Assembly (NCBI GenBank): GCA_017893485.1
Contig: JACEHZ010000207.1
Coordinates: forward strand, 1,612,001-1,676,000
Source: Hemerocallis citrina
Lineage: Eukaryota > Streptophyta > Magnoliopsida > Asparagales > Asphodelaceae
Length of the DNA stretch: 64,000 nt
Direction: 5' to 3'
Position numbers and translations under genes: made by a program
The notes under the pieces: model-generated
The model's database searches: none
What the model was told of the DNA's origin: nothing
Seen by the model: the letters and a program-made list of their open reading frames with translations, nothing else
Shown: positions 6,953-36,880 of the stretch, piece by piece
Layout: each line of letters begins with the position of its first letter
Numbering within the stretch: the stretch's first letter is position 1

Positions 6953-9000
6953 CAACACTGGGCCTCCTTCAGCTCGCCCGTAAGTTTGGTGACCTCGCGG
7001 GAGTGCTTATCCGCAGTCTTCCTCTCGACGAGGACCTCCTTCTCCATGCACCGGTGGTAGTTCTGTACATGGAGCAACAACTGGTCGAGGAAGAACAAGT
7101 TAGAAAAATCCTGAACTCCAAAATTCTGTGCACATGGAAAACACCAAACACTTATCGAGAATTGCGCCCGAGCCAACCTCATGTAGGCTGTCCCGGACGT
7201 CTGCGTTGCCAGATTCATCCGATCCCGCTCTGTGGCGATATGCTCCACTGCCTCCATTTCCACCGAGCCCTCGATCAAGGTGTCCCCTACCTTGACCCCC
7301 CATTCCGAGATGTGCGGCAGCAAGCCCTGCCTGCCCACCATCTCCGCAGCATCGGGGCGAGGGGGCGGGAGCCTCTGCTCCTGAACCTCGGCCACCTTCT
7401 TACTTCCGGAGCTCGCCCCCGGTTCCTTCTCTGACCTCGATGAGTGGTGATGCCTTTTTACCCTCTTCGGGGATGGCTGCACGGGCACCTGCATCCGCAC
7501 CGTACTGGACCCCATGGCCGGTGCTCCACTCTTCTCCTGCGCGGCCTTCTTTACCAAATCGTCCCTCCTCTTGGCGGCCAGGGCTACCAAGGCATTGCAG
7601 TTTTCGAGCTCTTTGGCAGACATCTCTACAAAAGGAAAAAGTAAAAATGTTAACACAAAGGCAGAAAGAAAAATGAAATGGGAATAAAAACATACTAGGG
7701 TCGGCTGGGCTCAGTCCGGCTCGAGCGAGATGCAGCTCCGTGACGCGAGGCCACCCGATGCTGTGCCCCTCCACGATCTTATCAACCTTTGCCACTCTTT
7801 TTTGGTCAAGTCTCTTCGCTTCGGCAGCTTGTGGTTCGGCTTTCCAAAATTCCAAACTGTCGGAATTTCCCAAGGTTTCTCACTTCGGACTATGAAGTAC
7901 TTCTCCTTCCACCTCTTTATAGAGTCTGGATGTCCATGCATCACTTTCTTATGAGGGCATGGTGAGAGATAAAAAATCCCCTCCTGGTTCCTGAGCGAGC
8001 CCATCCCCAAGATGACGCGGAAGTATGTGAGCTTCGGCGTGATCCCTTTCTCCTGACACTTCAAAATAAAATACTCTAAGTGTTTCCATGAGTTGGGACC
8101 GTACTGCATGGGGCTCAGCTCCCCCTAGTTTAGCACCCTCTTGATGAACGGATGCAGCAGAAGTCTCAACCCCGAGATAAAAGCATCCTCATGGAACATA
8201 CAGAAGCTCGACCCTAGCACGGTGGTCGGGCGGATGCCTGGGTCTGGCACAAGCAACTCAAACTCCCGCAGAATAAAGAAGGTTGCCCTCAAGATGGGCA
8301 AGTAGTCCCTATGCAAGGTGCACTTCACGCTGTCCATCTTGATCATGGATCGGCCTTCGTCCCGCGGCAATGAAGTGTACGCAAGAAGATCCTCCACGTC
8401 GTCAGGGTACATCCTGATCGACCCTGGATTTTTGCCAGAAAGATGGGGGTACTTAAACCCGGAGCCATACTCATATTTGTCCTTCTCGGCCGGATTGTCG
8501 GGCTGTATCCACTTCCTTTTCCTCCTTCGGGGGTGGGGCTTCTTATCAGATGAAGGGGTCGCTAGAGGGGGCAACGGTGGGAGGTCTGTCTCCTCCTCCT
8601 CGACCTCTTCCGTGGTACCTCTGACCTCGCCATGTTCGCTACCACCTTCAGTCCCTTGTTCGGAACCCTCCTGACCATCATCCTTCTCAACCTGCTCCTT
8701 TTCCCCCGGGCCTCCTTCCCCTGGCTCATTGTCCTCATCAACAAAATCCTCCCCAGCGTCTCCCTCCTCATGCTCGCTCTGCTCAATAGGATCCCCTTCC
8801 AGTCCGCGAACTCGTAAAAGAGACACGTTATAAACTACAACAGCCTCGTCTCCCGATAGTTACTCCTCCTTCACTTGAAATTCATTCGATGACCAAGATA
8901 TCAAAGACGAGTGAACTTCCTCCTCGGCGCGACCTAAAGTGCCTGCCTAAGAGCCGGACTGAGAGCGTGACATTTGAAAATAAAAATACTAACCTATTTC
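6953..9000 (-). pseudogene. Antisense gene of Tat B, 5' part (Transposase_28-like domain)
   Basis: This gene runs opposite to the element's gag-pol. The largest piece (8826-8125) starts with an acidic Glu/Asp/Gly-rich stretch, followed by a basic KPHPRRRKRK patch and the beginning of the domain listed in Pfam as putative gypsy-type transposon (Transposase_28). A TAG near 8126 interrupts it. The domain continues in 8109-7711 (NSWKHLEYFILKCQ, YLSPCPHKK, KRWKEKYFIV). After a frameshift the exon ends at 7696. A 70-bp intron (7695-7626, GT...AG) follows. Exon 2 (7625 to about 7165) is basic and then helical, and a second intron (about 7162-7088) has lost its GT donor. The coiled-coil coding is cut at about 6953 and resumes at 36881. 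Function is unknown. Confidence 0.7.
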
Positions 9001-9107
9001 ACCGGAGAACGTAAAAGTCAATGAAAAGTGGTCACCGGCAGCTTGCAAGGAAATTTCTGTTGTAAAGAGGATGAAAGCAAAGTGAAGAAGTGGGGTGAGG
9101 GGAGGGG

Positions 9108-9118
9108 GATTTATAAGC
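9108..9118 (-). promoter_or_regulatory. TATA box of the Tat B antisense gene
   Basis: The minus strand reads CTTATAAATCC here, about 110 bp upstream of the first plausible ATG of the antisense gene (near 8970). TATA motifs occupy comparable places upstream of the antisense genes of Tat A (21925) and Tat C (60185). The 9119-9320 stretch further upstream holds no gene; it is ordinary GC-rich element sequence. Confidence 0.5.
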
Positions 9119-9319
9119 AGAGATGAGACTCCTCGAATTTCGCAAAGAGATCTGGTCGTTTGATCTTCATCATCAAGATCTAACGGCCACTAAGATCTAG
9201 ATGACATCAGCCTAGAGCGCAAAAATACCTTCTTACCCTCGGCTCCATCGACCAACGCGGCGGCTCATTGCGCAGGGTCAACTTCTCAGGTACTTCACCT
9301 TTGTTCACCAAAGTCTCTC

Positions 9320-10078
9320 TCAACAACTTGGGGCTCGACGCTAGTGTCACCGTGAGCCCTAAAAAATTTCTCCCAGCAACTTGGGGGTCGACGCTCGGAT
9401 GTCACCGCGAGCCCTAAAAAGTTTCTCTCAAAGGCTTGGGGCTTGACGCTCGGATGTCACCGTGAGCCAAAAAAATTTCTCTCAAAGGCTTGGGGCTCGA
9501 TGCTCGGATGTCACCGTGAGCCCTAAAATGTTTCTCTCAAAGTCTTGGGGGTCGACACTTGGATGTCACTGCGAGCCCCAAAAAGTTTCTCTCAACAACT
9601 TGGGGCTCGACGCTCAGATGTCACCGCGAGCCACAGAAAATTTCTCCCAAAGGCTTGGGGCTCGATGCTTGGATGTCACCGCGAGCCACAAAAAGTTTCT
9701 CTCAAAGGCTTGGGGCTCGATGCTCGGATGTCACCGCGAGCCCCAAAAAGTTTCTCTCAAACTCTTGGGGTCGATGCTCGGATGTCACCGCGAGCCCCAA
9801 AAAGTTTCTTTCAACAACTTGGGGCTCGACACTCGGATGTCACCGCGAGCCACAAAAAGTTTCTCTCAAAGGCTTGGGACTCGACGCTCGGATGTCACCG
9901 TGAGCCACCAAAAGTTTCTCTCAACAACTTGGGGCTCGACGCTCGGATGTCACCACGAGTCACAAAAAGTTTCTCTCAACGGCTTGGGGGTCGACGCACG
10001 GATGTCACCGTGAGCCACAAAAAGTTTCTCTCAACAACTTGGGGCTTGACGATCGGATGTCACCGCGAGCCACAAATT
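9320..10078. repeat. 55-bp tandem array in Tat B (about 14 copies)
   Basis: The core GCTCGGATGTCACCG recurs every 54-55 bp (for example 9397, 9452, 9506, 9561, 9671, 9726, 9780, 9835). Units vary by substitutions and 1-bp indels. Because 55 is not a multiple of 3, the array stays open in all three plus frames and creates long spurious ORFs (9462-10147). Three or so related units in the opposite sense occur at 40056-40215, on the other side of the antisense gene. Confidence 0.9.
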
Positions 10079-10500
10079 ATCTCCCAACCAGTGAGGGGGT
10101 TCACCTCCCAAACCTCGACGCTCGGTAAGCCGAGCTCCTACTCCTAGGGCCTCGACGTCCCCTTGCTTTTCCAACCGTAAGGGGGCTCACCTTCCGACCC
10201 TCGACGCTCGGCAAGCTGAGCTCCTACACCTACGGCCTCAACGTCCCCTTGCTTTTCCAACCAATGAGGGGGCTCGCCTACCGACCTTCTATACTTGGCA
10301 AACCGAGTTCCTTCTCCTAAGGCCTCAATGTCCCCTTGCTTTTCCAACAAGTGAGGGGGCTCATCTCCCGACCCTCGACTCTCGGCAAAGCAAGCTCCTG
10401 CTCCTCAGATCTTGATGCCCCCTTGCTTTTCCAACAAGTAAGGGGCTCGTCTCCCGACCATCGATGCATGGAAAACCAAGCTCCTACTCGTTAGCACTCG
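10079..10500. repeat. 87-bp tandem array in Tat B (4-5 copies)
   Basis: The motif CCTTGCTTTTCCAAC recurs at about 10161, 10247, 10334 and 10421, a period of 86-87 bp. The array lies between the 55-bp array and the polypurine tract/3' LTR. The remaining 10500-10652 holds no gene. Confidence 0.85.
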
Positions 10501-10669
10501 GCACCCCTCGTAACTCCAAGAGGAGATCCCCTGCATTCTACCCTGCTGACCTCTTTAGGAAGATACGGATCCCGTTCTTCGCCGTACACACCACCCCGCT
10601 CTTCCTACAGAGGGAAAAAACCCCTCCTACATGGTTGCATTATCCAGCCCTTCAGGAGTGGGGGGCTCC

Positions 10670-11180
10670 TGATATGGGTCAGATGACGTGGCCCTTCCTG
10701 GGCCACAGGATCCCCTCAAAAATTGCTCACCCCTGATCATCAGGTTTGCCAGGTCAACCCTAAGCCCCATGGGTTTCTGTCACGTCAGGCCCACAGGAAA
10801 ACAGGTCCAGACCCGGCCCAAATGGGTCCAGACCCGCTTTGCACTGCCTATAAATACCAGGCCCTCTCTCCCTTCACAGGTAATCAATCTTTCCCCTCTA
10901 AAAACCCTAGTTACTGTTACTCTTCAGTGACTAACTAGACCATCGGAGGGCCTGCCACCGGGATCAACCCCGGTGTTCCTAGGCCGAGTGCAGGTACACA
11001 AGACTTCCAGATCCGCACCTCCAGATCCGAGCCGAGCATCCGACCTCCACCTCACTCCCGCATACTCCCGAGACGTTCCCTCAACTGAGGGTCAGGCATA
11101 TAGCCAGTACCGAAGCTACCACTTTACAAATTGAGAGAACTCACACCTGGTGCAGCCACCCCCAAAAACAAACCGCATCA
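10670..11180 (+). mobile_element. 3' LTR of Tat B
   Basis: The LTR is 511 bp, with TGATATGGGTC at its start and AACCGCATCA at its end. It follows a purine tract with a run of six G residues. A TATA box (TATAAATA) sits at 10849-10856. The 5' partner at 45453-45939 (487 bp, opposite orientation) shares the start, the end, the TATA region and a TCCCGGTG-type motif near the R region. Indels separate the two, so the insertion is old. Confidence 0.85.
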
Positions 11181-11631
11181 GTAGTGTATTGAGACATTAT
11201 GGAGATTGATACGAGTAGTCCTAATGCATTCATAATGAATTAGGAATGCATTAGGATTTTTTTATAAACAAAATTTTTATATGAAAAGTTCGTATTCCTA
11301 ATGCATGTAATTTTGTATATACGAGTATTGCCGTATTTTTCAAATTTTAGAAGATTTATGTGTATGTATGAATGGTTTTACGTAGTGTATTGAGATGTTG
11401 TCAATATTGATATGAGTAGTGTATTGATACGAGTAGTCAATAGTCAAATTTTTTATATATGAGAATTGGTCTATTTTCAAATTATAGAAAAATTATGTGT
11501 ATGTAAGAATGGATATACGTAGTGTATTGAGATGTTGTTGATATTTATATGACTAGTATATTGAAATGATTAGTGTATCCCAATACTCAAATTTTGTACA
11601 TGACAAATGCTTTATTAATGTTGACAGATAA

Positions 11632-13507
11632 ATGGTCCGACCGAGTGGAGTCATAGCCATCGAGCAATGGTAGAGGCCAACCACCATCACAAGTAAGAAG
11701 CGTATAATATTTTTAGTTATGAATCTTAATGTCTAATATTGTTTTTACAAAACAAAAATTTATACGTTTGTGTAGGATGCTGGCCAACCATCTACTTTGC
11801 ACAAAGTAGGAGCGTCATCTTCAGCCACACATGCAGGTCCAGGTTTATTAGACCCAACTCTACTATACTTGCAAGAAGAGCATAGTTCTCAAATTGTGTA
11901 GGAGGGGTCGACGAAGGCAATGTGTTTCCGTTTACATACGACATTACCTATGCACCTATTTGGTCAATGCCGATTTCCATGGAATGAGCATGGTGGGAAA
12001 TATAAAATTCAACCGTTCATTACTTACAGCTCTTGTTGAGCGATGGAGGCCGAAGACACACACGTTTCATCTACCAGTTAGAAAGATGACGATGACACTT
12101 CAGGATATAGCAGTTATATTCGGACATCCGATAGATGGGGTTGCCGTGACCAGAAACTTAAGAGTTCAATAAAGTTTCCTTTGTTAGAGATTATCTTGGG
12201 AAAGATGTTGATGAAGACGAAAAATGTGTGTTTGTCGGCGAATCAATCTGACGTTTTGTCTATATTTAGAGTTCAACAATAAATTAAGATAACCCGACCG
12301 ACTTCCAACTTCAGAGTTACACTCAGGCGTACCTCATGAGTATGTTGGGAGGTGTTATCTTTCCAAACTCTTCTGGTGATATCGTCCACCTTATGTTTCT
12401 ACCATTGATAGCTGATTTACACAGAGCCGACCGTTTAGTTAGGGAAGTGCAGCGTTGGTTTCCCTGTATCGCGTATTGTGTAATTGTGCGATAGGATCCA
12501 TACAGATGACAGGGCCAATGGGGTTGCTAGTGTTGGGAACATATACACTTCGACCATCCCCGAATAACGGTTCTTTCACAAAATTGGGTGGTAGTTGATG
12601 GGAACCCCGTGATGAGTTCTCCTCTAGAGGTTTACTAGACCGGTGGCCACAGGTGAAGAGATATCACACGTGGAGTGTTGACATATTACAGAGATGAGCT
12701 TGATCACTGCGGAAATAGTACGATAACTGGGATCCATACACCCCCGATCAATTGGAAATGCTACCACCCTTGTGCACGGCTAACATGCAACTATGGTTGA
12801 CGAGAGATTCACATGTTAAATTCAATATCGTGGAGTTCTAACATCCGGATATAGTTTGTCGGAAATTTGGTGTTCAACAAAAAATTCCTGATAACAGCAT
12901 GTACAACCGACGACTAAACAACATCACAGGTTAGGGTCGTATGCTCGCCTAATATTGATAGGGCTGAACATCATTAAGCTCATGTGGCCATGTGGAATGT
13001 GCAAAAATACGATTTGGTGCTTGAAGGTCTCATACCATACAATGGGTCGGAGCAAGAAGTGTACATGACGTGATACCGTCGTGTTACACGCTTATATGAT
13101 TTGCACGAGAAATCCTTAACCCGTGTCGATTTTTACTTCACGAGGTAGTCGACAGACAAAATCTCAATGCTTTTCTAGCTCAACCTCCACCACCACCACC
13201 AAGACAAGCTGAACCTCCATCACCACGACAAGTTCAACCCCAACCATCACATGGGCAGCGACGAAAGAGCGTTACTAGGCCGAGGGAAGGTGCTCAACTT
13301 CAAGCGCAACAACATGAGCGAACACACGAGATTGTAAAAGAGGAAACTGAGCATGAAGATGAGCCACTCCCTGAGATACCCGTGTCACAGTTGACACAAG
13401 TAGAACGTACACGCAAAGTCTCAGAACGGAAGAGGAGCAAGCCTACAACACTACATACCCAGCTAGTGTATGAACTTATTATTTTGTTGTTGATTGGCTC
13501 AAACTAG
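11632..13507 (+). pseudogene. Plant mobile domain (MAIN-like) transposon gene, copy 1
   Basis: The best-preserved piece (about 11894-12172) contains LVERWRPKTHTFHLP followed by MTMTLQDIAVIFGHPIDG, the signature of the plant mobile domain found in MAIN/MAIL proteins and in some Mutator-like and gypsy elements. Downstream, in shifting frames, come the FGVQQ-IP segment (about 12860-12890) and a proline-rich tail (about 13175-13260). An intron (11693-11775, GTAAG...TAG) matches one at the same place in copy 2. Many stops and frameshifts are present. Host MAIN-family proteins act in silencing of repeats; the role of the transposon versions is not established. No known transposase catalytic core is visible. 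Confidence 0.75.
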
Positions 13508-13769
13508 AAAAAGGAATTTTTTTGAAGTAATAACAAGAAGTGTGCATGTAGTGTTTGTTTACTTGTGCTTGTTTGTTTACCAATTGTGTTTTGTTGTTGA
13601 TTACGTGTTGTTATTATTATTACAATTTGTTGATGTAAATTTTTGATATATATGGTTGAGGTTGATCGATGAGAAATTTGTGTGAATGTGATGCATGTTT
13701 TGGAACATTGTATGGTACAGGTGTGATACAAGGGTGGTCCTCTCTGTTTTTTATTTTAAGTTCAACTAA

Positions 13770-14830
13770 CTGATGCAGATGTTGGGGGTAATGACATCAG
13801 TTACCTGTAATGTTATTCCTAATAGCGACATCTGTTATAAAATAGAGCTAAACTGACAGGATCATATATGTAAAAAAAAATCAACTAATGTCTCTATTTC
13901 CAGCAACGGCATCAGCTGTTTTAATACCGTTAATGGAAATAGCGACTGTTCAGATAGAGAGTTCCAAAGACCAAACATTTGGAGCTAAAAACTTCATTAT
14001 CATGTTGCCGCTATTTCCACTAACGGCATAGTTATACCTGTTGCCGTAATTAGAAATAGCGGCAACAGTTCAAATACGATTTCAATTATTAACTATGGTT
14101 AGACAATTTTCATTATTATTGTTGCCGTTATTGCCAATAACGGCAACAAGTATGATTATGTTGTTAATGAAAATAGCTGTATCAGGTGCCAGCGGCGAAG
14201 CCTGAACAATTTTACTGGGAGGGCCAAAGAAAAATTCTATGACTACCTGTAAAAATATAGAGATTTTTTCATAATTTTTAGGGTGGCCAAACAATAAAAC
14301 TTATAATTCAGGGGGGCCAAATTATAAATTTTTAAGGGTTTATAAAATTTTCAATAGTGTGAAGGGGGTTTTTGAAAATTCGGGGGGGGGGGGGGGGGGG
14401 GGGGGGGGCACCCCCGGGCCCTCACTATGCTTCGCCACTGTCAGGCGCGGAAGTTTTTGGTTCCAAATGTTTCCTCTCTGGAACTCTATGTCTGAACACT
14501 CGATATTTTCATTAACGACATCATTATGCATGTTGTCGTTATTGGCAATAGCGACAACAGTTCAAATATGATTTCAATTTTTTTATTCATATTATACAAT
14601 TTCATTTGAATTGTTGTCGCTATAGCCAATAACGACATCAGTTATAATGATTCTACACTTACAATTTTTTCTCAATTCAGAGAGCTCTCAGTTTAATGAT
14701 GTACCTATGTCGTTACTCCCCTAAGCCGTTACTCCCAATAGTCGGATTTGGAATTTTTTTTTACAAGTGCCGCTATTGGAAACAACAACATTAAAATAAC
14801 ATATGTTGTTATTGTCAATAATATTTTATG
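13770..14830. repeat. Array of short imperfect palindromes (copy 1)
   Basis: Motifs of the form GCCGTTATTGCCAATAACGG recur here in both orientations with variants (TTGCCGCTATTTCC/ACTAACGGCA, TTGTCGTTATTGGC/AATAGCGACA, and others), separated by AT-rich spacers. The same arrays are found at 53850-54710 and 46375-46610, which are the corresponding parts of related elements. No coding is seen. A hAT-like MITE is inserted at 14190-14440. Confidence 0.75.
14190..14440. mobile_element. Non-autonomous hAT-like MITE with poly-G run
   Basis: The 251-bp element has short terminal inverted repeats (CAGCGGCGAAGC at the left, GCTTCGCCACTG at the right) and an 8-bp target duplication with one mismatch (TCAGGTGC 14182-14189; TCAGGCGC 14441-14448). 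It contains an uninterrupted run of more than 20 G residues (about 14382-14408). Its insertion splits the palindrome array of PMD-MULE copy 1. Confidence 0.75.
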
Positions 14831-14896
14831 CTGACGTGTCCAAAAATGAGTCAGTTTGGTAATTATTTCTCAGTACAGAAAAAACTCAAAATCAGT

Positions 14897-15058
14897 AGGT
14901 TTTTTGCGTACATGTCACCCAAGATTTCGAAATTACAGATTATTATTTGTATATACATCACTAAAAAAATTTACTTTTTGTATATTCATCACGAATAAAA
15001 TGAGGTTTATTTAAAAATGTTATTTTTGCGTAACTTTTCATCCAAACAATATATATAT
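14897..15058. other. Intergenic, AT-rich, nothing recognised
   Basis: This is the flank of PMD-MULE copy 1. It is AT-rich with no gene or repeat that I recognise and ends in a short TA run at the insertion site of the next element. Confidence 0.6.
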
Positions 15059-15227
15059 AGGGCAATACTCCATTGCAAACGGGTATGAAAACCACAGAAG
15101 TCGTTGTTGGAAACCACGGTTTCAATGTTAACAACTGAAGCCATTGTTCCCAACAATGGCTTAGGTTTATAACCTAAGTCGTTGTTCTCAACAATGATTT
15201 AGTGGTTTGCAATGAAACATTCCTCTT
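15059..15227. mobile_element. Small foldback MITE, relative of 33068-33770
   Basis: The ends are inverted: AGGGCAATACTCCATTGCAAAC at the left edge and its imperfect complement at 15203-15227. The core contains GTCGTTGTTGG and CCATTGTTCCCAACAATGG palindromes. It sits in a TA-rich site. End sequence, TA-rich target and palindromic core match the larger element at 33068-33770. Confidence 0.65.
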
Positions 15228-15248
15228 ATATATATCTCTAATCTCTAA

Positions 15249-15424
15249 TCTCTAATATTATAATGGGAGAGGACCTTAGTGTCATTTGTAAATTTGTAAA
15301 TCTACCAACGCGTGCAACACACATGCATAACTATTATAAAAGAGATCCTAGGTTCAAATCCAGACTAAGTCTAAATTTTTATTTTAAAAAACTATATTTA
15401 TTAAAACGTGCATCGCACTACTAG
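15249..15424 (+). mobile_element. Short Helitron-like element
   Basis: It starts with TCTCTAATATTATAAT after an A and ends with CTAG before a T, which is the A/T insertion site typical of Helitrons. A small hairpin (GTGCATCGCAC) precedes the CTAG end. At 176 bp it has no coding capacity. A similar element is at 18309-18545. The 15425-15673 stretch that follows holds nothing I recognise. Confidence 0.5.
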
Positions 15425-15681
15425 TATATCTAACATAATTTATTATGTAAACTACTAGTATATATAATGGACACTCTTATATTATTTTGACCCTTATACA
15501 TAATTAGTTATCCCTCTTCTATTATGAAATCCAAGTTCTCATCTCCATTAATTATACACTTCATAAGAAAATAAGGTTCAAAACTAGGGTATGATATGTT
15601 AAAAAATGAGAATATTCATCTTTTTTAGATAAAAATACTCAATAAAAAATATTTTTTAATCAACCCTACTTCAGTGATGGT

Positions 15682-16587
15682 CAGAGCCGGTCCTGAGGTA
15701 TTTGAGGCCCTGGGCAAAAAAAATAGGCCCTTTATAGACACTCATGTATTTTTATATATATTAATAAATTATAATATAACGGCAGGGGACATAAAAACAA
15801 TACCCAAAAAAATAAAGATTACCTTTATTTTGATTTATGACACCAAATACTCCATATTTTTCATTAAGCATAGTGACAGCGACTCTTGCACCTGTCAAAT
15901 AAATAAAAAAATCACATCTCATAAGGCCAGGGCCCCAGGAATCAAGCTTATCATATAAATAAGCTTCAAATTTCAGTTTGTCACTAAGCTTGCCTAACAA
16001 TAATATCAATCAATACTACTATTGTTGGAGTGATTTCTACCTCAGTACCTCTTAAACCCATCAAAAGAGATTCTCAATTCTATTAATTAAAAAAAAACGA
16101 CAAGAGAGGGCTAAACTACCAGAGTAGTGCTAAGAAGACCAACAACTCCTGCAGTCCTGCTAAGAAGACCGACAACTCCAACTACGCCTCTGATACCCGG
16201 GACACCATGGCTACAACTCCAACTACAACTCCTGCTAAGAAAAAAAACTCTGTAAAAGAAACAAACGAAAATTCTCAACTGACAATTTGAAGAAGATCTG
16301 ATGATGCCGGAAGGGGAGAGAGAGTGTGAGTGAGAGAGAGAGAGAGAGAATTTGAAGAAGATGAAGAGACTAGACAAAAAAATAAAATGAAGAAGTTGAA
16401 GTGACACTGAAAGAGAGAGAGAGAGATTACTAAATTGGGCCCTCCACTAAAAATTAATTACAAATCCATTAATTCATTATATTAATTATAAGACCATTAA
16501 TTTATTATATTTAAAAAAATTTGGGCCCCTCCCCTGAAGTGAGCCCTGGGCGGTCGCCCTGTTGGCCCTCGGCCAGGGCTGGCCCTG
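15682..16587. mobile_element. Non-autonomous hAT-like element
   Basis: The 906-bp element is flanked by a perfect 8-bp duplication GTGATGGT (15674-15681 and 16588-16595). The ends are inverted: CAGAGCCGGTCCTGAGG at the left and CCAGGGCTGGCCCTG at the right. Inside are GA/CT-rich microsatellites (about 16310-16430) and no credible gene. The following 16596-16800 is AT-rich with nothing recognised. Confidence 0.8.
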
Positions 16588-16808
16588 GTGATGGTGTATT
16601 TATAAATTATCAAACTTTATTAGTGATGTATGTATAAATAATATAAAATTAGTGAGTAATCTACTATTTTAAAATTTTGAGTGATATATCGGGAAAAAAA
16701 CTAAATTAGTAAATAGTAATGATAAGGAGTGCAAGAGGCAAGCAATTAGATTTCAGAAGAGGACAAAGAGGGCTAGCAGATTGGTGCAACTATTTGCATC
16801 CTTTTGGT

Positions 16809-21920: not shown

Positions 21921-21924
21921 TGGC

Positions 21925-25435: not shown

Positions 25436-25774
25436 ATAAGTTGCTGTGATTATGCTTCTTTGAGTTTTTGTAGCAACTCGTAGTAGTAACTTGGTCTTGT
25501 AACTTGAGCGCTCTTGTACGCTAAAATTTTATATAAGTGAAAGCTTGTTTCTCTTCTGTGTTTGTGTGTTTTGTTGGTAGGCATTTATTCAAGTACAACT
25601 CCTCCAACTTTTAACAACTACTCAAAATCAGAAGCCATTCTTTCTTCTTATAGGCACGGAATGTCTCACTTCAACTTTAAACGAACCATGGGAACCAAAG
25701 GTTCAGCACCCCTAAGTACTCTTCTCCCATGTCTAGTGTAGTTGTAGACATTTCACGCGCGTCGTTTAAGCTTC

Positions 25775-26238: not shown

Positions 26239-26431
26239 GTTAAAGGCCTTAAACAGAGAGATAAAAATAATCCACAAGGAAAAATATGGGAAAAGATAAT
26301 CTTTATTGATAACTGCTAATCGGCTGCTTCTAAGTTGCAAGCCGTTATTACAATCGAGAAAATAAAGAAGCAAAATACAAGAAGTAAGAAGGAGAGGAAT
26401 GGCTCGACATTTAAGGCACGAGGAAAGGCAT

Positions 26432-27669: not shown

Positions 27670-29847
27670 TCAACGAGCTTCTTTAGGGTCTTCGAGGAGG
27701 AGCCCATCCTTGAGGAATTCTATCAAATATTTCATCCAGTTGTCCTGAAGCTGGACGGGCAGCGACTCCATTGAGTCGGGGGTTTCTTCTTCTATGCTCG
27801 GTCTTAGGAGGACTTCAATCAGGACAGTCTGCTCGAGACCTTGAAGGGAGGAGGAGGCCAATTTGGAGAGGGCATCTGCTTGGGAATTTTCTTCTCTGGG
27901 GATCCGCTGGATTTGGGCCTCTTCGAATGAAGCCATGAGACTTTGGACCTTGGCTAGGTACTTAGCCATTCGGTCGTCTCGTGCCTCGTACTCCCCTAAG
28001 ACTTGGTTTACAACTAGCTGAGAGTCACTGAATATCCGGAGACGTTGTACCTCTGCCTTGCGAGCCATGCCGAGGCCGGCTATAAGCGCTTCGTACTCTG
28101 CTTCGTTGTTGGAGACCTTAAAATTGATGCGGAGGGAATATTGGAGAACGAAGTCATCTGGGCCTACCAGAATGACCCCGGCTCCGCTCCCCTCGATGCA
28201 AGAGGACCCGTCTACATACACCGTCCAGATAGGGGGCCCTTTTGCCGCTTGACTGACCTCTGGTATGGTGCTCTCAACAATAAATTCATCTAGGGCTTGA
28301 GCCTTGATTGCGGTTCGAGGCTGGTATGATATGTCATGCTGGCTCAGCTCGATCGACCACTTCATCAGATGGCCGGAGGTCTCGGCTTTGTGTAGAACTT
28401 GTTTAAGCGGCTGGTCAGTAAGAACGACTACCGAGTGGGACTGAAAATAGGGGCGGAGCTTCCTAGCTGCCATAACCAAGGCGTACGCCATCTTCTCCAA
28501 TCTTGGGTACCGAAGCTCGGCATCCCGAAGTACTTTGCTCACGTAATAGATGGGCTTCTGGGCCTTGTCTTCTTCCCTCACTAGGACAACACTAAGGGTT
28601 TGCTCAGAGGCAGATAAGTAGAGGTAGAGTGTTTCCCCGAGGATAGGCTTGCTGAGAAGAGGGGGATTGACTAGATAGGCCGTTAGCTGATCGAACGATT
28701 CTTGCTGCTGCTGACCCCACTCGAAGCCCTTAGCCCCCCTGAGGGCTTTGAAAAAAGGAAGACACTTTTTTCCTGACTTAGATAGGAAGCGCCCTATGGC
28801 TGCGAGGCGACCAGTGAGTTTCTGAACCTCTTTCATACTTTTGGGAGGGGCCATGTCCAGTATGGTTTTGATCTTCTCGGATCTGGGAGGTGGGCTGTGC
28901 TGGCCCCTATTGTCTTTCTGGATCTTCTTAGCTCCCTCTTCTTCAGCTGCCTTTCTCTTGTTCCCGGAGGAAGACCCCTCAAATATGGGGCGATGCTCAA
29001 CTTCCTCAGCCCGGATATACTTCTCGCTTCTGAGAAGGAGGTCGGAGAAGTTTTGCAGAGGCTTCTTGGCTAGGGAGGACCGAAGGCCTGAGTTAAGGAC
29101 ATTTGATTGGAAGGCTGCTGTAGCGACCGACTGGTCGAGGGAAGCAATGGACCTAGCTTCCGCGGTGAATCGCTTCACATAATCTCTGAGCTTCTCACCC
29201 TTCTTCTGACTGAGATAGAGTAGCGAAATACTGGTTTTCTCGGTGCGGCGGCTACTCACAAAGTGGGTGACGAAGAGGGTCTCAAATTGTTCAAAGGAGA
29301 ATATAGAGGATGGGGCAAGGCGAGAGTACCATTCCCGAGCCGGACCCTTGAAAGTAGCTAGGAAGGTTTTGCACAGCAGGGCATCAGAAGCTTGGTGAAT
29401 CAACATGAGGGTCTTAAAGCTCTCGATATGGTCCATTGGGTCTGACTCCCCAGAGTAAGTCTCGAACTGCGGGGTCTTGAAGCCTATTGGAACGGGCGCC
29501 TCCATAATTGTTCGAGAGAAGGGAGGTCGGCTCGGACGGAGGGTCCTTCCTCTCAGCTTATCTTTCCTGTCTAGTTGGCAGAGGTGCCTTTCCATCTCAT
29601 GGAGACGACGATAGACAGCATCATCCATTTGACGGTAGGCAAATGAGTCTCTGAACTCGTCTTCGTAAGAAGGGGAGCGGGGACTACGGCGATGGTAGCT
29701 CAGGGATTGACGAGGACTAGGAACATAATGGCGGTTGCTAGGAGCTGGGGGAGGAGTAAAGGACCGATGGCGAGGACTTTGGATCGGAGGAGGTGTGGGG
29801 ACCCTCTGAGCATTGTTGTTGTCAGTTCGGAGGTTGAGGGCTTGCAA
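27670..29847 (-). CDS. Fused gag-RNase H ORF of Tat A (725 codons, internal deletion)
   Basis: This uninterrupted frame joins two normally distant parts of a Tat polyprotein. Residues about 115-285 are a retrotransposon gag (capsid) domain (FKGPAREWYSRL, YVKRFTAEARSI). After about residue 325 it jumps to the end of reverse transcriptase and the first RNase H (PFFKALRGAKGFEWG at 364-378, YPRLEKMAYAL). Residues 541-665 form the second, archaeal-type RNase H with D546, E584, D608 and D658 in place. Protease and the catalytic reverse transcriptase palm (no YVDD) are missing. The junction is near nucleotide 28872. The upstream gag part (30432-29866) is in the same frame, separated by one TAG. The frame ends with a TGA before integrase. 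Whether it is expressed is unknown. Confidence 0.8.
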   Translation of the reverse strand: MQALNLRTDNNNAQRVPTPPPIQSPRHRSFTPPPAPSNRHYVPSPRQSLSYHRRSPRSPSYEDEFRDSFAYRQMDDAVYRRLHEMERHLCQLDRKDKLRGRTLRPSRPPFSRTIMEAPVPIGFKTPQFETYSGESDPMDHIESFKTLMLIHQASDALLCKTFLATFKGPAREWYSRLAPSSIFSFEQFETLFVTHFVSSRRTEKTSISLLYLSQKKGEKLRDYVKRFTAEARSIASLDQSVATAAFQSNVLNSGLRSSLAKKPLQNFSDLLLRSEKYIRAEEVEHRPIFEGSSSGNKRKAAEEEGAKKIQKDNRGQHSPPPRSEKIKTILDMAPPKSMKEVQKLTGRLAAIGRFLSKSGKKCLPFFKALRGAKGFEWGQQQQESFDQLTAYLVNPPLLSKPILGETLYLYLSASEQTLSVVLVREEDKAQKPIYYVSKVLRDAELRYPRLEKMAYALVMAARKLRPYFQSHSVVVLTDQPLKQVLHKAETSGHLMKWSIELSQHDISYQPRTAIKAQALDEFIVESTIPEVSQAAKGPPIWTVYVDGSSCIEGSGAGVILVGPDDFVLQYSLRINFKVSNNEAEYEALIAGLGMARKAEVQRLRIFSDSQLVVNQVLGEYEARDDRMAKYLAKVQSLMASFEEAQIQRIPREENSQADALSKLASSSLQGLEQTVLIEVLLRPSIEEETPDSMESLPVQLQDNWMKYLIEFLKDGLLLEDPKEAR

Positions 29848-29865
29848 GATAGTTGCTTGGAATTG

Positions 29866-30432
29866 CTAGAGTTCGGCACGGGTGATAGGTGCGTTATCAT
29901 TCCTCAGGGGTTGTCGACCAGCGGGAGAACGAGGTCTTCTTCTATGGTGCTCAGGGGACTCTCTCCATCTTCTGTGAGGTGGGGACCTCCGATAGTCTCG
30001 GCGACGAGGAGATCGCTCACTTGGACGTTCTTGGCGGGAGGCTCCCTTACGGGCCTGCCTTTCATCCAAACGGCGACGAAGGTCCTCCTCTTTCTGCCGA
30101 TTGATTAGAATATTACGGAGGTCTTCGGAAGCTCGGGGGTTGTGAGATGCCATCGAATCAGTAGAGGGGTTGTGCACGGAGATGTGGTTACGATGAAGGG
30201 GTTGTTTCAGAGGATTGGGACGGGAGGTCCCTGTGCCGGCATTCTGGGGCCCGAGCGGTGCCCTTTGGGATTGAAGGTTTTGAAGAGGAGGTTGGTCCTG
30301 CAGCGGGGGCTGATCAGGTTGTAGTGGGAGTTGCCCCTGTGGCTGGACGGTTTGGAAGGGAATCTCCTGTTGTGGTTGAGGAGGAGTGGATCCACGGTTG
30401 GACCCTTTGGATCTCAGTTTTTGGAGAGGCAT
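29866..30432 (-). pseudogene. N-terminal gag region of Tat A
   Basis: A 188-codon frame begins with ATG at 30432 about 70 bp inside the 5' LTR. It is Gln/Pro-rich, then Arg-rich (RRLDERQARKG, SPRRRDYRRSPP), and ends at a TAG (29866-29868). The frame continues in the fused gag-RNase H ORF, so this is the start of the same polyprotein with one nonsense change. The Arg/Ser-rich part may bind nucleic acid; that is an inference from composition. Confidence 0.7.
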
Positions 30433-30482
30433 GGCTAGAGGTGATCTTAACCAAGGGAAGAGGGAGGATTGCTATTCTTGAA

Positions 30483-30503
30483 TTCCCACAGACGGCGTCA
30501 ATC
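30483..30503 (-). other. Primer binding site of Tat A
   Basis: Directly inside the 5' LTR the minus strand reads TTGACGCCGTCTGTGGGAATT. The equivalent site in Tat B is TTGGCACCGTCTGTGGGAAT (45432-45451). This GCCGTCTGTGGGAA form is usual for plant Tat-type elements and primes minus-strand DNA synthesis from a tRNA. I do not assign the tRNA with certainty. Confidence 0.65.
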
Positions 30504-31067
30504 TGTTGTTACTAAATCTGGTGAGAGGGCAAACAGATAGAATTTGTGGATTCTTAGGGAAACCGAATAACCAAACCTGAAACCTTTTCACCGGAGTTTG
30601 ACTGTTGACTCCCGTCGTTCACCTGCAAAAAGTGCGATACACCGGGGTTGATCCCGGCAACGCACCCTCCGACGCTCAAGTCAGTAATCAGAAAGATTAT
30701 GAATGAGCTTTTATTGGCAAAAGATTGATTACCTCTTAATGGTGGTGGATGGGGGGTATTTATAGCTGCCTTTGGGACCAGTTTAGGAATGAAATCCCTA
30801 ATTCCCAGTGAAATGATAGAGTGAATCAGGGCCGTTGATTAAATACAATCAGAAATCCTAATTCTATCCAGCTGGACTGGGTTTCTTGCGGGTTGGGACC
30901 CGCACCCAGTTGAGACGAATCCGTTCGTGGGTTATTGGGCCTTTGTAGAAAAGACCCAGAACCCATCTCGGACCTGCTTGCAGGTAAAATTACCATTTTA
31001 CCCCTAAGCTTTAAGATTCGTATCCGATTTGGACGGTTCCGATTTAACCCTATTTTTAGCCATATCA
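30504..31067 (-). mobile_element. 5' LTR of Tat A
   Basis: It is 564 bp, the same length as the 3' LTR, with about 30 substitutions by hand count and no net indel. On the minus strand it starts TGATATGGC and ends AACAACA. The minus-strand TATA box is at about 30758-30765. The target duplication ATCAG follows at 31068-31072. Confidence 0.92.
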
Positions 31068-31072
31068 ATCAG

Positions 31073-32410
31073 TAAATCAAGACCAATTAATGATAAAGAA
31101 ACAGAAAAAAATTCATCATAAAGAACCTTAAGACTAAAAGAAATAATTACAAATTACGAGATTCCAATAAGAACATAATTTAGTGTCTACAAAAAAATAA
31201 AAAAATAAAAAATATATGAAAAGAACCAAGCAAGATGGAAACTAAGCAACTTAGAAATATGCGACATGTGTAATTTTGACAACTATGCTTGTGAATTTAA
31301 AGAATATTTCCAAGATAGTTATGATACAAAAGAAGAAAATAGCCCAATCTTGGACTTATTTGTTTTCTAAAACTATCAAATCCATGGGGTATAAACATAT
31401 ATAATGTATACATAAATGAGAAAGTAAAACTAGAAACAAATACTTTAGGATATATAACACAATTTGTAAAAGATTATCGAGACAAAGTGTGCCAAGAAGC
31501 TAGATCAACTATAAAAACTTTAGAACATATAAACAAAGAATTTGTCTTGAAGAAGCAAAACCAAAGCACTGGGGATGTAACAATAATTATAATTATATAA
31601 AAACATAAAAATAAAATGAAATATAAACCAAAATACAGAAAAACATTTAAGATATATAAAAAACACCATAAAAAATAATTCAGGAAAATAAATAATAACA
31701 AAAAATATCCAAAAAACCCAAAGAAACTTAATTGTTATATATGTAGAGAAGTATATCATATCACCAAATTGTCCTAACAGAATCAGAAAATAAAATGTGA
31801 AATATATAGAAGAAATTGAAGAAATGTATAACATAAACTATGAATCTATAGAATATGAAGAAAAATGGTCAGAAATAAGTGAAGATAAAGAAATAATGAT
31901 AATGGAAGAAGATAGTGGAAGTAATGAGGTTGAAATATAAGAATATGGAATAAATGTGATAACAAAAATGGGAGAACCATTAGAAAGAGAAGAAAATAAT
32001 GAAGAAGTAAGAGAAAGAATAAGCTTTGATATACAAAAATATGATAAAATAAGAGCAACCAAACTAGATATAAACTCAAAAGAAATATTTAAACTACCAA
32101 TATTTGAAAGAAAAAGGAATACCATAATAATAACCAGAAATAATGATCAATCTATAAACATTAAACAAGCTCAATGAAAAACCATAGTTCCATTGATAAC
32201 AGAAAGAATAATAAGATAAAATATAGAAGAAAAAAAAGTGAGAAAACCAAGAAGACATTAAGACACATATATTTAGGAGTAGTACAACTAATAATAAAAG
32301 CTTATTTTAAGGAAAGAATAAATACACCCTTAGAATTATACTTAATGGTTGATAGAATAATATCAAGTATACAAGATTCCCTAACAGAAATAGTATAAGG
32401 AAACTTAATG
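31073..32410 (+). pseudogene. Endogenous caulimovirid fragment: zinc knuckle and movement-protein N-terminal part
   Basis: The fragment continues the EPRV copy interrupted by Tat A. Around 31725-31790 a Lys-rich stretch leads into a CxxC...H...C zinc-knuckle-like motif, read across one frameshift, as in the capsid C-terminus of caulimovirids. After an acidic stretch, 31956-32400 encodes, with a TGA at 32175 and small frame changes, the N-terminal part of a 30K-superfamily movement-like domain. It stops at 32410 in the duplication TAATG (32406-32410), where a Tekay-like LTR begins. The C-terminal part of the same domain is on the other strand at 6852-6427. The order zinc knuckle, movement domain, protease is notable. 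It is a dead copy. Confidence 0.55.
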
Positions 32411-35400
32411 TGTAACACCCTGCAAAATCGAGTAAAGACAATTTTGCCCCTCGCGTGTTACGCACGTGTATTTTGTACCGTTACGGGTAATATCGGTAAC
32501 GTATTTTAATACGTATTTTGTATTTCGACTATTCATGCATTTCTCGTTTTCTCCAAAATTCATTTTTATGTTATTTGAGCTAACTCAAATATTAAATTTC
32601 AATCTTTATGTTTTTACGTGCATTGCACGTGTTATCGATGCACGCGTCAATTACGTATATTCTACCGTTACGTGTAATATTTTCTGTGTTTAAATTATTT
32701 ATTTTATGATGAGTTTGAGTTCTTTTTATAAACGGAAATTCATTTTTCTCCTATTTTGATTAAAATATCTTATACGTGCGGTGCACGTGTTTTTTATGGA
32801 TGTGTTGATTATATTCTGGTATATGTATAATGAAATATATTTTCGTATTTTGTATTTCGATTATTTATAAATATTTCCCTGTGGATAAACTCTATTTTGT
32901 ATTTTAATATTTTTACGTGTGACGCACGTGTTTGCAGTGACGTGTGGTTGTATTTTCTTTCAAAAGAAAATTTTGAAGTGTGTGTGCTTATTTTATTTGT
33001 GCATGAAAAATCTAATTTATAATTAAATCCAACTAATTTTATTTAAATGCATATTATATATATATATGGGGCAAATGCTCCATTGAAAACGGGTCTAGTT
33101 TTCACGAGTTGGAAAACATGAATCTGAGCCATTGGATCGCTCATGATAGCGATCAGTGGCTCAGATCGAGCCCCCCATCACCCGTTTCAATTGATGAGCG
33201 GAGGGTTATTTTGGAAATTTCGTCCCAAATAACTCTTCGCCTCACTAATTCTAAAAAAAAATGATATAACCTAGGCCGTTGTTGGGAACAACAGCCTAGG
33301 TTATAAAAAATTGAATCATAGGCCGTTGTTCGGAACAACGGCCTTGTCTCAATTTTTATAACCTAGGCCGTTGTTGGGAACAACGGCGCCGTTGCCGTTG
33401 TTGGGAACAACGGCCTAGGCTATAAAATTTTATAGAAATTTATAGAAATTTTATAGTCTAGGCCATTGTTGGGAACAATGACCTAGGTTATAAAAATTGA
33501 GAACAAGGCCGTTGTTCTAAACAACGGCCTATGATTTAATTTTTTATAACCTAGGCCATTGTTCCCAACAACGGCCTAGGTTATATCATTTTTTTAGAAT
33601 GAATCAGGCGAAGAGTTATTTAGGACGAAATTTTCAAAATTACTTAAGTCATATTGGGTGATGGGCGGAGGTGATCTCAGCCGCTGATCGAGATCATGAG
33701 CGATCCATTGGCTCAGATTCGTGTTTTCCAACCTATGAAAACAAACTCGTTTTCAATGGAGCATTTGCCTATATATATATATATAAACATATATTTTTAA
33801 TTTAAAAATAAAAATAATTAATTTTGTGAAGTATACACAATGCATGTGCACGTGCAATGTGCACACCCCAAAGATAGGTGGGCTGTTCTTGGGAATTTAG
33901 GAGGTGGAGAAAGAGTGGTGGAGTAATGGGTAGTTTTTTTATTAGTGGTTAAATTAAATTAACCATTACTTAATTAAACAAATCTCTTTATAAAACTACT
34001 CATTCCCCACTCCTATTTAGCCAAAAAAATAAATATAAAACAACTTCAAAAAAATGGATGGGCTGTGCTCTCGGGATATCTTACTGTAGGCTTTCGGATT
34101 GTGTTGCTGGAGATTTTTGCTTGGTTTAGGGTGGATTTTGGAGTGCTTTTGTGAAGGGAGATTGCTACTAGTAAATTCTTTCTAATAGGTGGGTGACTTT
34201 ACTTCATTTCTAATTATGTTTTAAAAGCATGTTTAGTAATTCATGTTGGAATTATGATTGAATTATTTTACTTCCAATGTTTATGTTCGTGTGATGCATA
34301 TGGTATGAAAATTTAGAAATTTTGTGATTGAAAATTGTGAAGAATGCATATTAAAAAGAAGTCTTTTATAGAATTTATGTGTAGTTGAAACATTAAATTG
34401 TATTAATTCTCATATGTGATATCATGAAAATTTTAGCATAATGTGAGTAGATTTTTTGTAGATGAATTGTGAAAGAAACAGATTGTGGTCAAATTGAGTG
34501 AATTATAAATTGTGAGAAATTATTCCATCACTCTACATGACATTGAAGAGAAAAAATATATATGTGTGTGTAGAGTAATGTTGTTAAATTATTTAAAGGC
34601 ATGTGTAGATGAATAATCAACTTGATTAAATTGCATGAATTTTTGTGTCTCTTGCGAATTGGTTTAAAATGTGTATAAAATAGATATAAATAGTAATGAA
34701 TAATTAGATAAATATTTTGGGGAAGGAAATGGGTATAGTAGAACAAAGGAAAAGTTGCATTAATGTCGGTAGAACAATTATCTAATTGTATTTTGGGTTA
34801 AAATTCCAATAAAAGAAGCAAATGATTAATTTGGGAAAATTGAAGTTAATTATCCAATAATATGAATAAAGTCAGTAAGATTATAATTTTGGAGGTTTAT
34901 AGATATATAAAAAAATTGGTATTAATTTGAAAGAAAAGAGATGGTTTTGTTAATAAATCAATTATATGTTTATGTGTTTCTAAAAATGAATATGTACCTA
35001 AGTGGGGTTAAATCTTCATTAATATGATTAAAGTCAATAAAATAACAATTCTGGAGATGTATAGAAATAAAATAGTAATATTAATTTGAAGAAAAGAGTA
35101 GAACTCAAAAATAGTTGAAAGTGTAAAATATGTGAATAATCAGAGAACCGAGTTAACTAAATTTTAACTCCGATTATATCGTAAGACCTGCTTGGCCTTA
35201 GTGGCTAGCATGGGCGCCGAAGCACCATGCGCTGCCATGTGGTGCCTCTGGGGTTTGGTTGGGGTTCTCGGGTTCAAAACCTCGTGCTCAAAAAAGTGTT
35301 TTGCTAAAAAAAAGTGTTTTTTTTGTATCTTTGGGGTTTTGGGGTTTTAAAAATTCAGAAAAAATTATATAAATATTTTAAAATATTATGTGAACATCTA

Positions 35401-36875
35401 AAAATATTTCTCACTATTTTAGTTCATATTTGGAGGTTTTAAAGTCATTTTTCATCTATATATTGAGTTGAGTTAAATTTGAAAGTAAAGGAAATATATT
35501 GAATTAAAGATTTTCATGAATTGATTATAAAAAATCAAAGTTGGAGTTTAGAATGAGGGACATTAGTAATGAATTTTTAAGTAAAATGTGTGCATTAAAA
35601 AGTGATGTTTTAATCAAAGAAATTTAATAAGATTGAAGTCTAGTGTGAGAAAGATTGTGTAGAATTAGTACAATGAAAGTGATTAGTTGATTGTTCAATT
35701 AAAGAGCATTGTTTATCAGAAATTTGATTTGGAAATTAATATAGAATGTGAATATAAGAGATGAAATGTTTTGGGCAAAAGATTGAATAAAAGAAGTTTA
35801 GTGAATAAGAATTCAAATGTGAATGAAAGAAATGGATAAGTTATGAATACATAGAATTGGGAATATGAATTATAAGGGTATGCATACCCATAATGTTGAA
35901 CATGGAAAGATGGGATTCTAGAGGCTAGTGAGACAGAGGTACCGACAAAAGTAATAGAAGTAATTATTAATTTTGAGAAAGGACCGGTATGGGCTATTGT
36001 TCTCGGTCTTTTTGTGTAAGACCGGTATGAGGGTAACCTAACTCTAGGTGGTATAATATATTCATGTTTAAACTTAAGGATTAGGCACTAAGTGGATATG
36101 TAATAAAACTTAGGCAAACACATGTGGTTTGCCTCTATATAGTCTGACGGTGGACTCTGGGACTACAGACCCAGTTTGACGGTGGACTCCGGAACTGTGG
36201 TTGCTTGTGATGGAGGCGAGCCTTAATTAAATCTGGGACTTTTTTTGTTTGACAGTGGACTCCAGGATCATGAGTACTCGGAGATGGGAGGCCGTTCTCC
36301 AGTGTATATATGTATACCGGGGCTAGAGGGACACTTGCGGGATGTTTGCACGACGAGGATTTTCGTATAAGCTTGACGGTGGATTCCAGGGCTGGGGGTC
36401 TGTACTCATGGAATGTATAAAACTTGATTTGTTACCGGATAGTTTTCATGGTGAGGGATTAAACCCTATAATATGGAGCACGTAAGTGCTTGCTCTTGGA
36501 CCTATGTAGTATGGGATGCATAGACTCCGAACAATTATGCATTAGTATCATCGTAATATAACGTCTGCATTAGGCATCTAAGTCATATCATACACTAACA
36601 TGTTTAGAATAGTCACTCTTGTACACTTTATTATGCATTCAAGTGTGTGGTTGCTAAAGTAAGTGAGTCGCTATATTATGGCATAGCGAGAATCGCCGTG
36701 TATAGTATTGTGTCAGTTCTATGTAACTGACGTGCCCACAATGTTCAATGCAGGGCTTGGATTGGCAAAGACTTACAAATGAATTTGAAGCTAAAGAATG
36801 TTTTAAATGTTGATGTTTAAATTGTACATGTGTTATATTGTAATCTTTATTATTCTGCTGTGTTGATGTAAAATG
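32411..36875 (+). mobile_element. Tekay-like solo LTR lacking its 3' end (inverted away)
   Basis: It starts TGTAACACCCTG at 32411 next to the TAATG duplication. It contains LTR-type sequence without coding: CACGTG-rich repeats (32440-32950), an AT-rich body, and four diverged copies of a TTGACGGTGGACTCC motif (about 36141, 36177, 36248, 36379). Its missing 3' end (about 100 bp, ending CAGGGCGTTACA) is at 6952-6853. No gag or pol lies between the two ends once the inversion is undone, so it appears to be a solo LTR of about 3.9 kb excluding the nested MITE. No host gene is seen. Confidence 0.6.
33068..33770. mobile_element. Foldback MITE with palindrome array, nested in the LTR
   Basis: The 703-bp element has inverted arms of about 200 bp or more. 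The left edge GGGGCAAATGCTCCATTG pairs with GGAGCATTTGCC at 33758-33769, and the match continues through the GATCGCTCATGA and GAAGAGTTATT regions. It sits in a (TA)n target. The centre (33270-33590) has about seven palindromes of the type GCCGTTGTTGGGAACAACGGC, spaced roughly 45 bp apart. No coding. The small element at 15059-15227 belongs to the same group. Confidence 0.8.
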
Positions 36876-36880
36876 AACAG

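What the first reader, a model, noticed from the sequence alone, without database searches (positions are those of the whole stretch)
6953..36875. A single inversion of about 30 kb explains five split structures
Seen in sequence: (1) the LTR start at 32411 follows TAATG, and the LTR end at 6853 (minus strand) is followed by TAATG; (2) the Tat B 3' LTR is followed by GTAGT (11181-11185), and the Tat B 5' LTR by ACTAC (45940-45944), its reverse complement; (3) the antisense coding of Tat B stops at about 6958 (minus) and resumes in frame at 36881 (plus); (4) PMD-MULE copy 1 is split between 11181-14887 and 45940-47215, with 9-bp flanks differing at one base once inverted; (5) the EPRV pieces at 6225-6852 (minus) and 31073-32410 (plus) end and begin at the same viral position and come to lie on one strand. 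Inference: one inversion, with breakpoints inside a Tekay-like LTR and inside the Tat B antisense gene. The breakpoints are not in long inverted homology; both sides share only a CAG or ACAAC-type microhomology, which suggests end joining. A mis-oriented contig in the assembly is the main alternative.
Basis: partly seen in the sequence, partly recalled or inferred. Interest (0 to 1): 0.9.

Follow-up and report, generated by a model that had tools for sequence, protein, structure and literature searches.

The report
A 30-kb inversion among nested transposons
A 30,000-base stretch of a plant chromosome (probably a monocot) appears to have been turned end for end, cutting two older mobile elements in half; flipping it back restores them, so the event looks real but is of an ordinary kind.

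Summary
One inversion of window 6958-36880 (reader: 6953-36875) reunites, on one strand, a 4.6-kb solo LTR (TSD TAATG), a 13.3-kb Retand-type element, Tat B (TSD ACTAC), a PMD-type DNA transposon, and two pararetrovirus pieces whose movement-protein gene the LTR had split. New support: Tat B's primer-binding-site region reads on the minus strand and its polypurine-tract region on the plus strand; base composition changes within 8 bases of both breakpoints; Tat A, wholly inside the segment, keeps its own TSD. The joints share a 3-bp inverted CTG/CAG and no long inverted homology, so end joining of two breaks is likeliest. The absence of Ns and the 3-bp overlap speak against a flipped contig, but no reads, haplotype or sister genome could be examined. 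The weakest of the five points is the transposon's 9-bp flank (8 of 9, ends poorly fixed). Inversions in repeat-rich plant DNA are known; interest is modest. A side finding may be more unusual: two different Tat elements follow the same nucleotide of a repeated motif in two transposon copies.

The parts
6958..36880 (.). inverted segment (6961-36877 is equivalent because of the 3-bp CTG/CAG)
   Evidence: restored flanks, strand polarity of Tat B ends, reading phase, composition change points
6958..6960 (.). left junction, CTG of the inverted CTG/CAG pair
   Evidence: sequence and GC change point 6955, support range 6944-6962
36878..36880 (.). right junction, CAG of the pair
   Evidence: sequence and GC change point 36885, support range 36874-36890
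6853..6957 (-). 3' end (105 bp) of the split solo LTR
   Evidence: terminal inverted repeat TGTAACRCCCTG and flank TAATG
32411..36880 (+). rest of the split solo LTR (4470 bp, with a foldback element at about 33055-33790)
6848..6852 (-). TSD TAATG, copy 1
32406..32410 (+). TSD TAATG, copy 2
6225..6852 (-). endogenous pararetrovirus piece, C-terminal part of a movement protein
   Evidence: PF01107 positions 144-188, E 1.9e-5
31068..32410 (+). endogenous pararetrovirus piece, coat-like (weak) then N-terminal part of the movement protein
   Evidence: PF01107 positions 56-112, E 1.3e-6; PF22909 below its cut-off, E 0.0077 and 0.015
6958..11180 (+). Tat B, 3' part in the sense direction: antisense gene (on minus), tandem repeats, polypurine-tract region, 3' LTR
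36881..45939 (-). Tat B, 5' part: 5' LTR, primer-binding-site region, gag, reverse transcriptase, a weak RNase H-type match, tandem repeats, end of the antisense gene (on plus)
   Evidence: (RVT_3 E 0.016, below cut-off)
45423..45452 (-). Tat B primer-binding-site region, resembling that of Tat A
   Evidence: the name is by position and resemblance
10629..10669 (+). Tat B polypurine-tract region (AGTGGGGGGCT), as in Tat A but on the other strand
   Evidence: the name is by position and resemblance
6958..8859 (-). antisense gene, N-terminal part, with two in-frame stops and a TRP28 match below cut-off
36881..37246 (+). antisense gene, C-terminal part
11181..11185 (-). TSD ACTAC of Tat B, copy 1
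45940..45944 (+). TSD ACTAC of Tat B, copy 2
11181..14887 (-). PMD-type DNA transposon copy 1, one arm
   Evidence: PF10536 in the plus frame 11852-12169, E 1.7e-18; similarity to copy 2
45940..47215 (+). PMD-type DNA transposon copy 1, other arm
   Evidence: longest match between the arms, 229 columns at 72%, is direct now and inverted once the segment is turned; 5 of the 11 listed matches between the arms are in the other orientation
14888..14896 (-). 9-bp flank ACTGATTTT
47216..47224 (+). 9-bp flank ACTAATTTT
19828..31067 (-). Tat A, complete inside the segment, TSD ATCAG at 19823-19827 and 31068-31072 (internal control)

Best explanation
A cluster of nested mobile elements (a pararetrovirus integrant with a solo LTR in it and Tat A in or beside it; a PMD-type DNA transposon with Tat B in it) suffered two double-strand breaks about 30 kb apart, one 105 bp from the end of the solo LTR and one inside the antisense gene of Tat B. 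The piece between was joined back the other way round by end joining, with a shared 3-bp CTG/CAG and no visible loss or gain. Shown: orientation, restored flanks, strand polarity of the Tat B ends, phase, breakpoints to a few bases. Inferred: that the event happened in the plant, that end joining did it, that nothing was lost at the joints. It is younger than the Tat B insertion (LTR K2P distance 0.074).
For: Three flank pairs match only in inverted orientation, 5/5, 5/5 and 8/9. The primer-binding-site region of Tat B is on minus and its polypurine-tract region on plus, while in Tat A both are on minus. The Tat B LTRs are 93.0% identical but inverted to each other. The longest match between the arms of the DNA transposon is direct now and inverted once turned. 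Movement-protein profile positions 56-112 and 144-188 lie on opposite strands. The antisense gene is in phase across the joint; its C-terminal piece matches Tat A (0 of 100 shuffles reach the score) and less surely Tat C (4 of 100), a non-Tat control giving 91 of 100, and in both it lies downstream of the N-terminal piece's matches. GC steps at 6955 and 36885. No N in 64000 bases. Flank-to-flank alignment at the joints is within the shuffled range for 50 and 1000 bp.
Against: No read, second haplotype or related genome was examined; the own-genome search did not complete in 7 of 7 tries. The 3-bp shared word has a chance of about 5% in blunt joins. The 9-bp flank is weak with slack, and the arms of the DNA transposon hold shorter matches in both orientations. 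The Tat C match of the C-terminal piece is marginal, and the region it hits also draws a low-complexity match of the N-terminal piece (E 0.009). Two database searches with the N-terminal piece found no relative. With 200-bp flanks the inverted score at the joints exceeded all 60 shuffles and was reached by 6 of 300.
Confidence: 0.85

Rival explanations
1. Assembly artefact: a contig or a chimeric read was placed the wrong way round.
For: No reads could be checked; nested repeats are hard to assemble (general knowledge).
Against: No N in the window. The joints share 3 bp only, far below a usual assembler overlap (general knowledge), and no long inverted repeat was found at the joints that could let an assembler flip the segment. 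No sequence is visibly duplicated at the joints: the longest shared words of the 100-bp flanks are 7 (direct) and 9 (inverted, away from the joint).
Confidence: 0.1
2. Inversion by homologous recombination between inverted repeats, or by aberrant (alternative) transposition of a DNA transposon.
For: Known routes to inversions: ectopic recombination between Galileo copies in Drosophila (PMC2775673) and alternative transposition in maize (PMC8225341); search listing and start of abstracts only.
Against: No inverted repeat of length at the joints; the best inverted match of the 200-bp flanks is weak and gapped. No transposon terminus or flank duplication at either joint: one is 105 bp inside an LTR, the other inside a gene.
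Confidence: 0.04
3. No inversion: the halves come from separate, truncated elements that happen to face each other.
For: Several elements of the same kinds lie in the window.
Against: Two exact 5-bp duplications at well-fixed ends, complementary halves with the primer-binding-site region on one and the polypurine-tract region on the other, and agreement of four structures on the same two breakpoints.
Confidence: 0.01

Closest known systems
Inversions in repeat-rich plant DNA (maize centromere 10 region, PMC4806543, abstract and passages seen)
   Same: Inversions among retrotransposons; the paper holds double-strand-break repair, in many of its cases with microhomology, the most plausible mechanism for its rearrangements.
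   Different: Those inversions were inferred mostly from synteny with sorghum and are larger; here a 30-kb event is read from one sequence through split nested elements.
Retand lineage of Tat LTR retrotransposons (PMC11963269, abstract and passages seen)
   Same: Long region between pol and the 3' LTR with antisense TRP28 genes and, in about half, tandem repeats; Tat A, B and C here look like this.
   Different: Tat B is cut in two by the inversion and carries stops in its antisense gene.
Defragmentation of nested repeats (REANNOTATE, PMC2672092, passages seen)
   Same: Rebuilding the history of nested elements from their fragments.
   Different: The passages say that only certain rearrangements are flagged and that pieces out of colinearity normally get separate models; here the test is flank duplications and strand polarity of the element's ends.

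Membership tests
Simple reciprocal inversion | Adjacency and orientation restored at both ends by turning one segment | tested here: met
Simple reciprocal inversion | Un-inverted ancestral or sister haplotype exists | not testable with these tools
   no plant genome collection is offered; the own-genome search did not complete in 7 of 7 tries
End-joining product | Little or no homology at the joints | tested here: met
   3-bp CTG/CAG; within the shuffled range at 50 and 1000 bp flanks; at 200 bp a weak inverted match, 6 of 300 shuffles as high
Recombination between inverted repeats | Long inverted repeats at the two joints | tested here: not met
Alternative transposition | Transposon termini and flank duplications at the joints | tested here: not met
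   joints lie inside an LTR and inside a gene
Retand (Tat) element, for Tat B | Antisense TRP28 (PF04195) gene between pol and 3' LTR | tested here: inconclusive
   E 0.0043, 17.7 bits, below the cut-off 26.2, in 7714-8124 (-); clear in Tat C, E 4.7e-15; weak in Tat A, E 0.021
Retand (Tat) element, for Tat B | Tandem repeats between pol and 3' LTR | tested here: met
   arrays at 38763-40051 and 9310-10489
Retand (Tat) element, for Tat B | Place in the reverse-transcriptase tree | not tested
   RT fragment only; no tree was built
Tekay-type LTR | Pol of that lineage beside the LTR | not testable with these tools
PMD-MULE | Plant mobile domain PF10536 | tested here: met
   E 1.7e-18, profile positions 2-65 of 347
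PMD-MULE | MULE transposase | tested here: inconclusive
   no transposase domain in the frames of the two copies that were scanned; short or broken frames were not all scanned
PMD-MULE | 9-bp duplication at ends with terminal inverted repeats | tested here: inconclusive
   8 of 9; terminal 16 bp agree at 9 of 16
Caulimoviridae (endogenous) | Movement protein | tested here: met
   PF01107 in two pieces above the cut-off
Caulimoviridae (endogenous) | Reverse transcriptase of the family | not tested
   only fragments are present and no frame of them was searched for it beyond the Pfam scans

The most novel reading that the evidence does not exclude
The locus shows directed integration by Retand elements: Tat B in transposon copy 1 and Tat C in copy 2 follow, in the same orientation, the same nucleotide of a repeated motif, CTCAATACACTAC. 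At the Tat B site, and in one of the two uninterrupted exact motifs, it is followed by GTAT, so that ATAC-ACTAC-GTAT forms a palindrome around the 5-bp duplication. Such preferred sites would stack large elements at the same spots and make them prone to breakage and inversion. By my count (2 such motifs, 3371 visible bases of copy 2, 2 orientations) chance is about 3 in 10,000. Whether it is the same repeat unit is unsure, because the two copies align in two registers, and the far end of Tat C lies outside the window.
Probability: 0.2. Interest if true: 0.5.

Novelty: new member of a known kind. Interest (0 to 1): 0.3.

Why it matters
It is a clear case in which an inversion, its place in the order of events and its breakpoints to within a few bases are read from a single sequence through split nested elements. 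Annotation that demands colinearity would probably report eight fragments instead of four structures. It also lies beside an open DRT102-like frame: the DNA transposon that holds Tat B ends 71 bp before its ATG. If that transposon landed in the gene's upstream region, the former upstream sequence, already pushed about 18 kb away by the insertions, now lies about 32 kb away and reversed. Whether expression changed is unknown.

Tried and rejected
Relatives of the antisense protein in the large protein set: none, neither for the whole left piece at E 1e-5 among the 7996 candidates scored nor for residues 146-360 at E 0.001 among 418; so continuity rests on Tat A and Tat C in the window. RNA families: 0 matches at gathering score. 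Split LTR against the other LTR element at 1-6224: no match better than E 0.23, only the last 35 bases or so look alike in a local alignment. Recombination between inverted repeats and alternative transposition: see rivals. A palindrome at the targets of Tat A and of the solo LTR: not seen, which weakens a general rule for Tat. In the listings and passages seen of eight paper searches I found no account of this locus or of Retand insertion at one motif of a MULE; other wordings were not tried.

Full report
What was claimed. One inversion between about 6953 and 36875 explains five split structures.

Flank duplications. Before the LTR start at 32411 stands TAATG; after the LTR end at 6853, read on the minus strand, stands TAATG. 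Both Tat B LTRs are flanked by ACTAC, at 11181-11185 on the minus strand and 45940-45944 on the plus strand. The DNA transposon has ACTGATTTT at 14888-14896 (minus) and ACTAATTTT at 47216-47224 (plus), 8 of 9. Read on one strand without inversion, none of the three pairs match. In two million random pairs from the window a 5/5 match came at 0.0013 and 8 or more of 9 at 0.00017. For the two LTR elements the ends are fixed by sequence, so there is little freedom; with one base of slack each way the 5/5 chance is 0.009 (300,000 pairs). For the DNA transposon the ends are poorly fixed: 9 of 16 terminal bases agree, and with ten bases of slack 5.8% of 600 random windows do as well. It counts as weak support.

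Polarity inside Tat B. Tat A (19828-31067) carries gag and pol frames on the minus strand, and so does the right part of Tat B (gag and reverse transcriptase; an RNase H-type match below cut-off). Next to the Tat B LTR at 45453 the minus strand reads GGTTGGCACCGTCTGTGGGAAT, resembling GATTGACGCCGTCTGTGGGAAT beside the Tat A 5' LTR. Next to the Tat B LTR at 10670 the plus strand reads CTTCAGGAGTGGGGGGCTCC, resembling CTTCGGGAGTGGGGGGCTTG before the Tat A 3' LTR on the minus strand. I name these primer-binding-site and polypurine-tract regions by position and resemblance; no call names them. So the two ends of Tat B lie on opposite strands, and one inversion between them sets this right. The Tat B LTRs are 93.0% identical (487 sites, K2P 0.074), those of Tat A 94.7% (564 sites, K2P 0.056). 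Tat A, wholly inside the segment, keeps its duplication ATCAG.

The antisense gene. The left piece ends in phase at 6958 and the right piece begins in phase at 36881. The left piece matches Tat C in order (39% over 213 columns, then 34% over 97) and Tat A (33.5% over 200). Acidic low-complexity stretches of the left piece also hit Tat C and Tat A out of order (E 0.001 to 0.012), one of them in the region that the right piece hits. The right piece matches Tat A at 23899-24255, where none of 100 shuffles scored as high, and Tat C at 62235-62591, where 4 of 100 did; a control stretch without Tat gave 91 of 100. In Tat C the right-piece match starts 283 bases after the left-piece match ends; Tat B turned back would give 219 (my count). 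This is order and rough spacing, not proof to the base.

The pararetrovirus. The frames 32165-32395 (+) and 6430-6801 (-) match PF01107 at 56-112 and 144-188. Counting coordinates only, about 32 codons lie between the matched parts where the profile has 31 positions, so the solo LTR seems to have split a movement-protein gene. Weak coat-like matches precede it on the plus strand. Left of Tat A the three frames that I scanned gave no viral match, so that Tat A lies inside the virus, and not only beside it, is not shown.

The DNA transposon. A plant mobile domain (PF10536) is found at 11852-12169; no MULE transposase was seen in the frames scanned, so the name PMD-MULE is half supported. The longest match between its arms, 14615-14840 with 46405-46617, 72%, is direct now and becomes inverted when the segment is turned; of the 11 matches listed, 6 are direct and 5 inverted now, the shorter ones being palindrome-rich.

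Breakpoints. Maximum-likelihood GC steps fall at 6955 (range 6944-6962) and 36885 (36874-36890). The sequences read ACAACA CTG GGCC at the left and ATGAA CAG AACAAC at the right, so the segment is 6958-36880 or equally 6961-36877. Shared homology is 3 bp; three or more bases come by chance in about 5% of blunt joins. Flank-to-flank local alignment is within the shuffled range for 50 bp (60 shuffles) and 1000 bp (15 shuffles); for 200 bp the inverted score 18 exceeded all 60 shuffles (highest 16) and was reached by 6 of 300 in a second run; that match is gapped and lies mostly in Tat B coding sequence on both sides.

Real or assembly. The window has no N. An assembler usually needs overlaps far longer than 3 bp, and no long inverted repeat was found at the joints. 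I take an artefact as unlikely (0.1) but could not check reads: the own-genome search gave no answer in seven tries.

Age. The inversion follows the Tat B insertion. With the rate 3.3e-8 used in PMC4806543 (passage) K2P 0.074 is about 1.1 million years; with the rice rate 1.3e-8 (recalled) about 2.8. That is an upper bound; there is no lower one.

Setting. The open frame 47284-48207 matches plant DRT102 proteins: 374 at E 1e-5 or better among 1003 candidates, best 120 listed; best named one Vanilla planifolia, 71% over 95%; the first seven named are monocots. So the plant is probably a monocot. The ATG at 47287 lies 71 bp after the transposon's end and 62 bp after its flank.

Known or new. Inversions among retrotransposons, with microhomology seen in many of the rearrangements studied, are described for maize centromere 10 (PMC4806543, abstract and passages). 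Retand elements with antisense TRP28 genes and tandem repeats are described (PMC11963269, abstract and passages). This is a new case of a known kind.

Side finding. Tat C begins at 57182 directly after CTCAATACACTAC in transposon copy 2 (53811-57181), and Tat B sits after the same motif in copy 1, same orientation; exact uninterrupted motifs stand at 11382 (followed by GTAAAA) and 11519 (followed by GTATAT), minus strand. The copies are 63 to 77% alike in their four longest matches and align in two registers here, so it may be the same motif of different repeat units. The Tat B target is palindromic for four bases beside the duplication; those of Tat A and the solo LTR are not. PMC6911290 (abstract and passages) reports only a weak palindrome preference of plant LTR elements.

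Noticed in passing
57169-57182 and 11181-11193 (-): Two different Tat elements (B and C) stand after the same nucleotide of the repeated motif CTCAATACACTAC, same orientation, in two PMD-transposon copies that are 63 to 77% alike.
   Followed up: partly
47284-48207: Open DRT102-like frame (307 aa from ATG 47287, RpiB plus cupin domains) with the transposon's end 71 bp before its ATG.
   Followed up: partly
1-6224: Part of another LTR element on the plus strand (SH3_Tf2-1 match at 2520-2906); its 3' LTR seems to end CAGGGTATGACA at 6224, right beside the pararetrovirus piece.
   Followed up: partly
33055-33790 and 15060-15230: Foldback-like stretches with CCGTTGTTGGGAACAACGG-like hairpins beside TA repeats; similar words occur in transposon copy 2 near 54000.
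   Followed up: no
31209-32395: A weak coat-like match lies before the movement protein, an order that I recall for solendoviruses rather than caulimoviruses.
   Followed up: no
34001-36000: Strong GC skew (0.434) at 28% GC inside the solo LTR.
   Followed up: no
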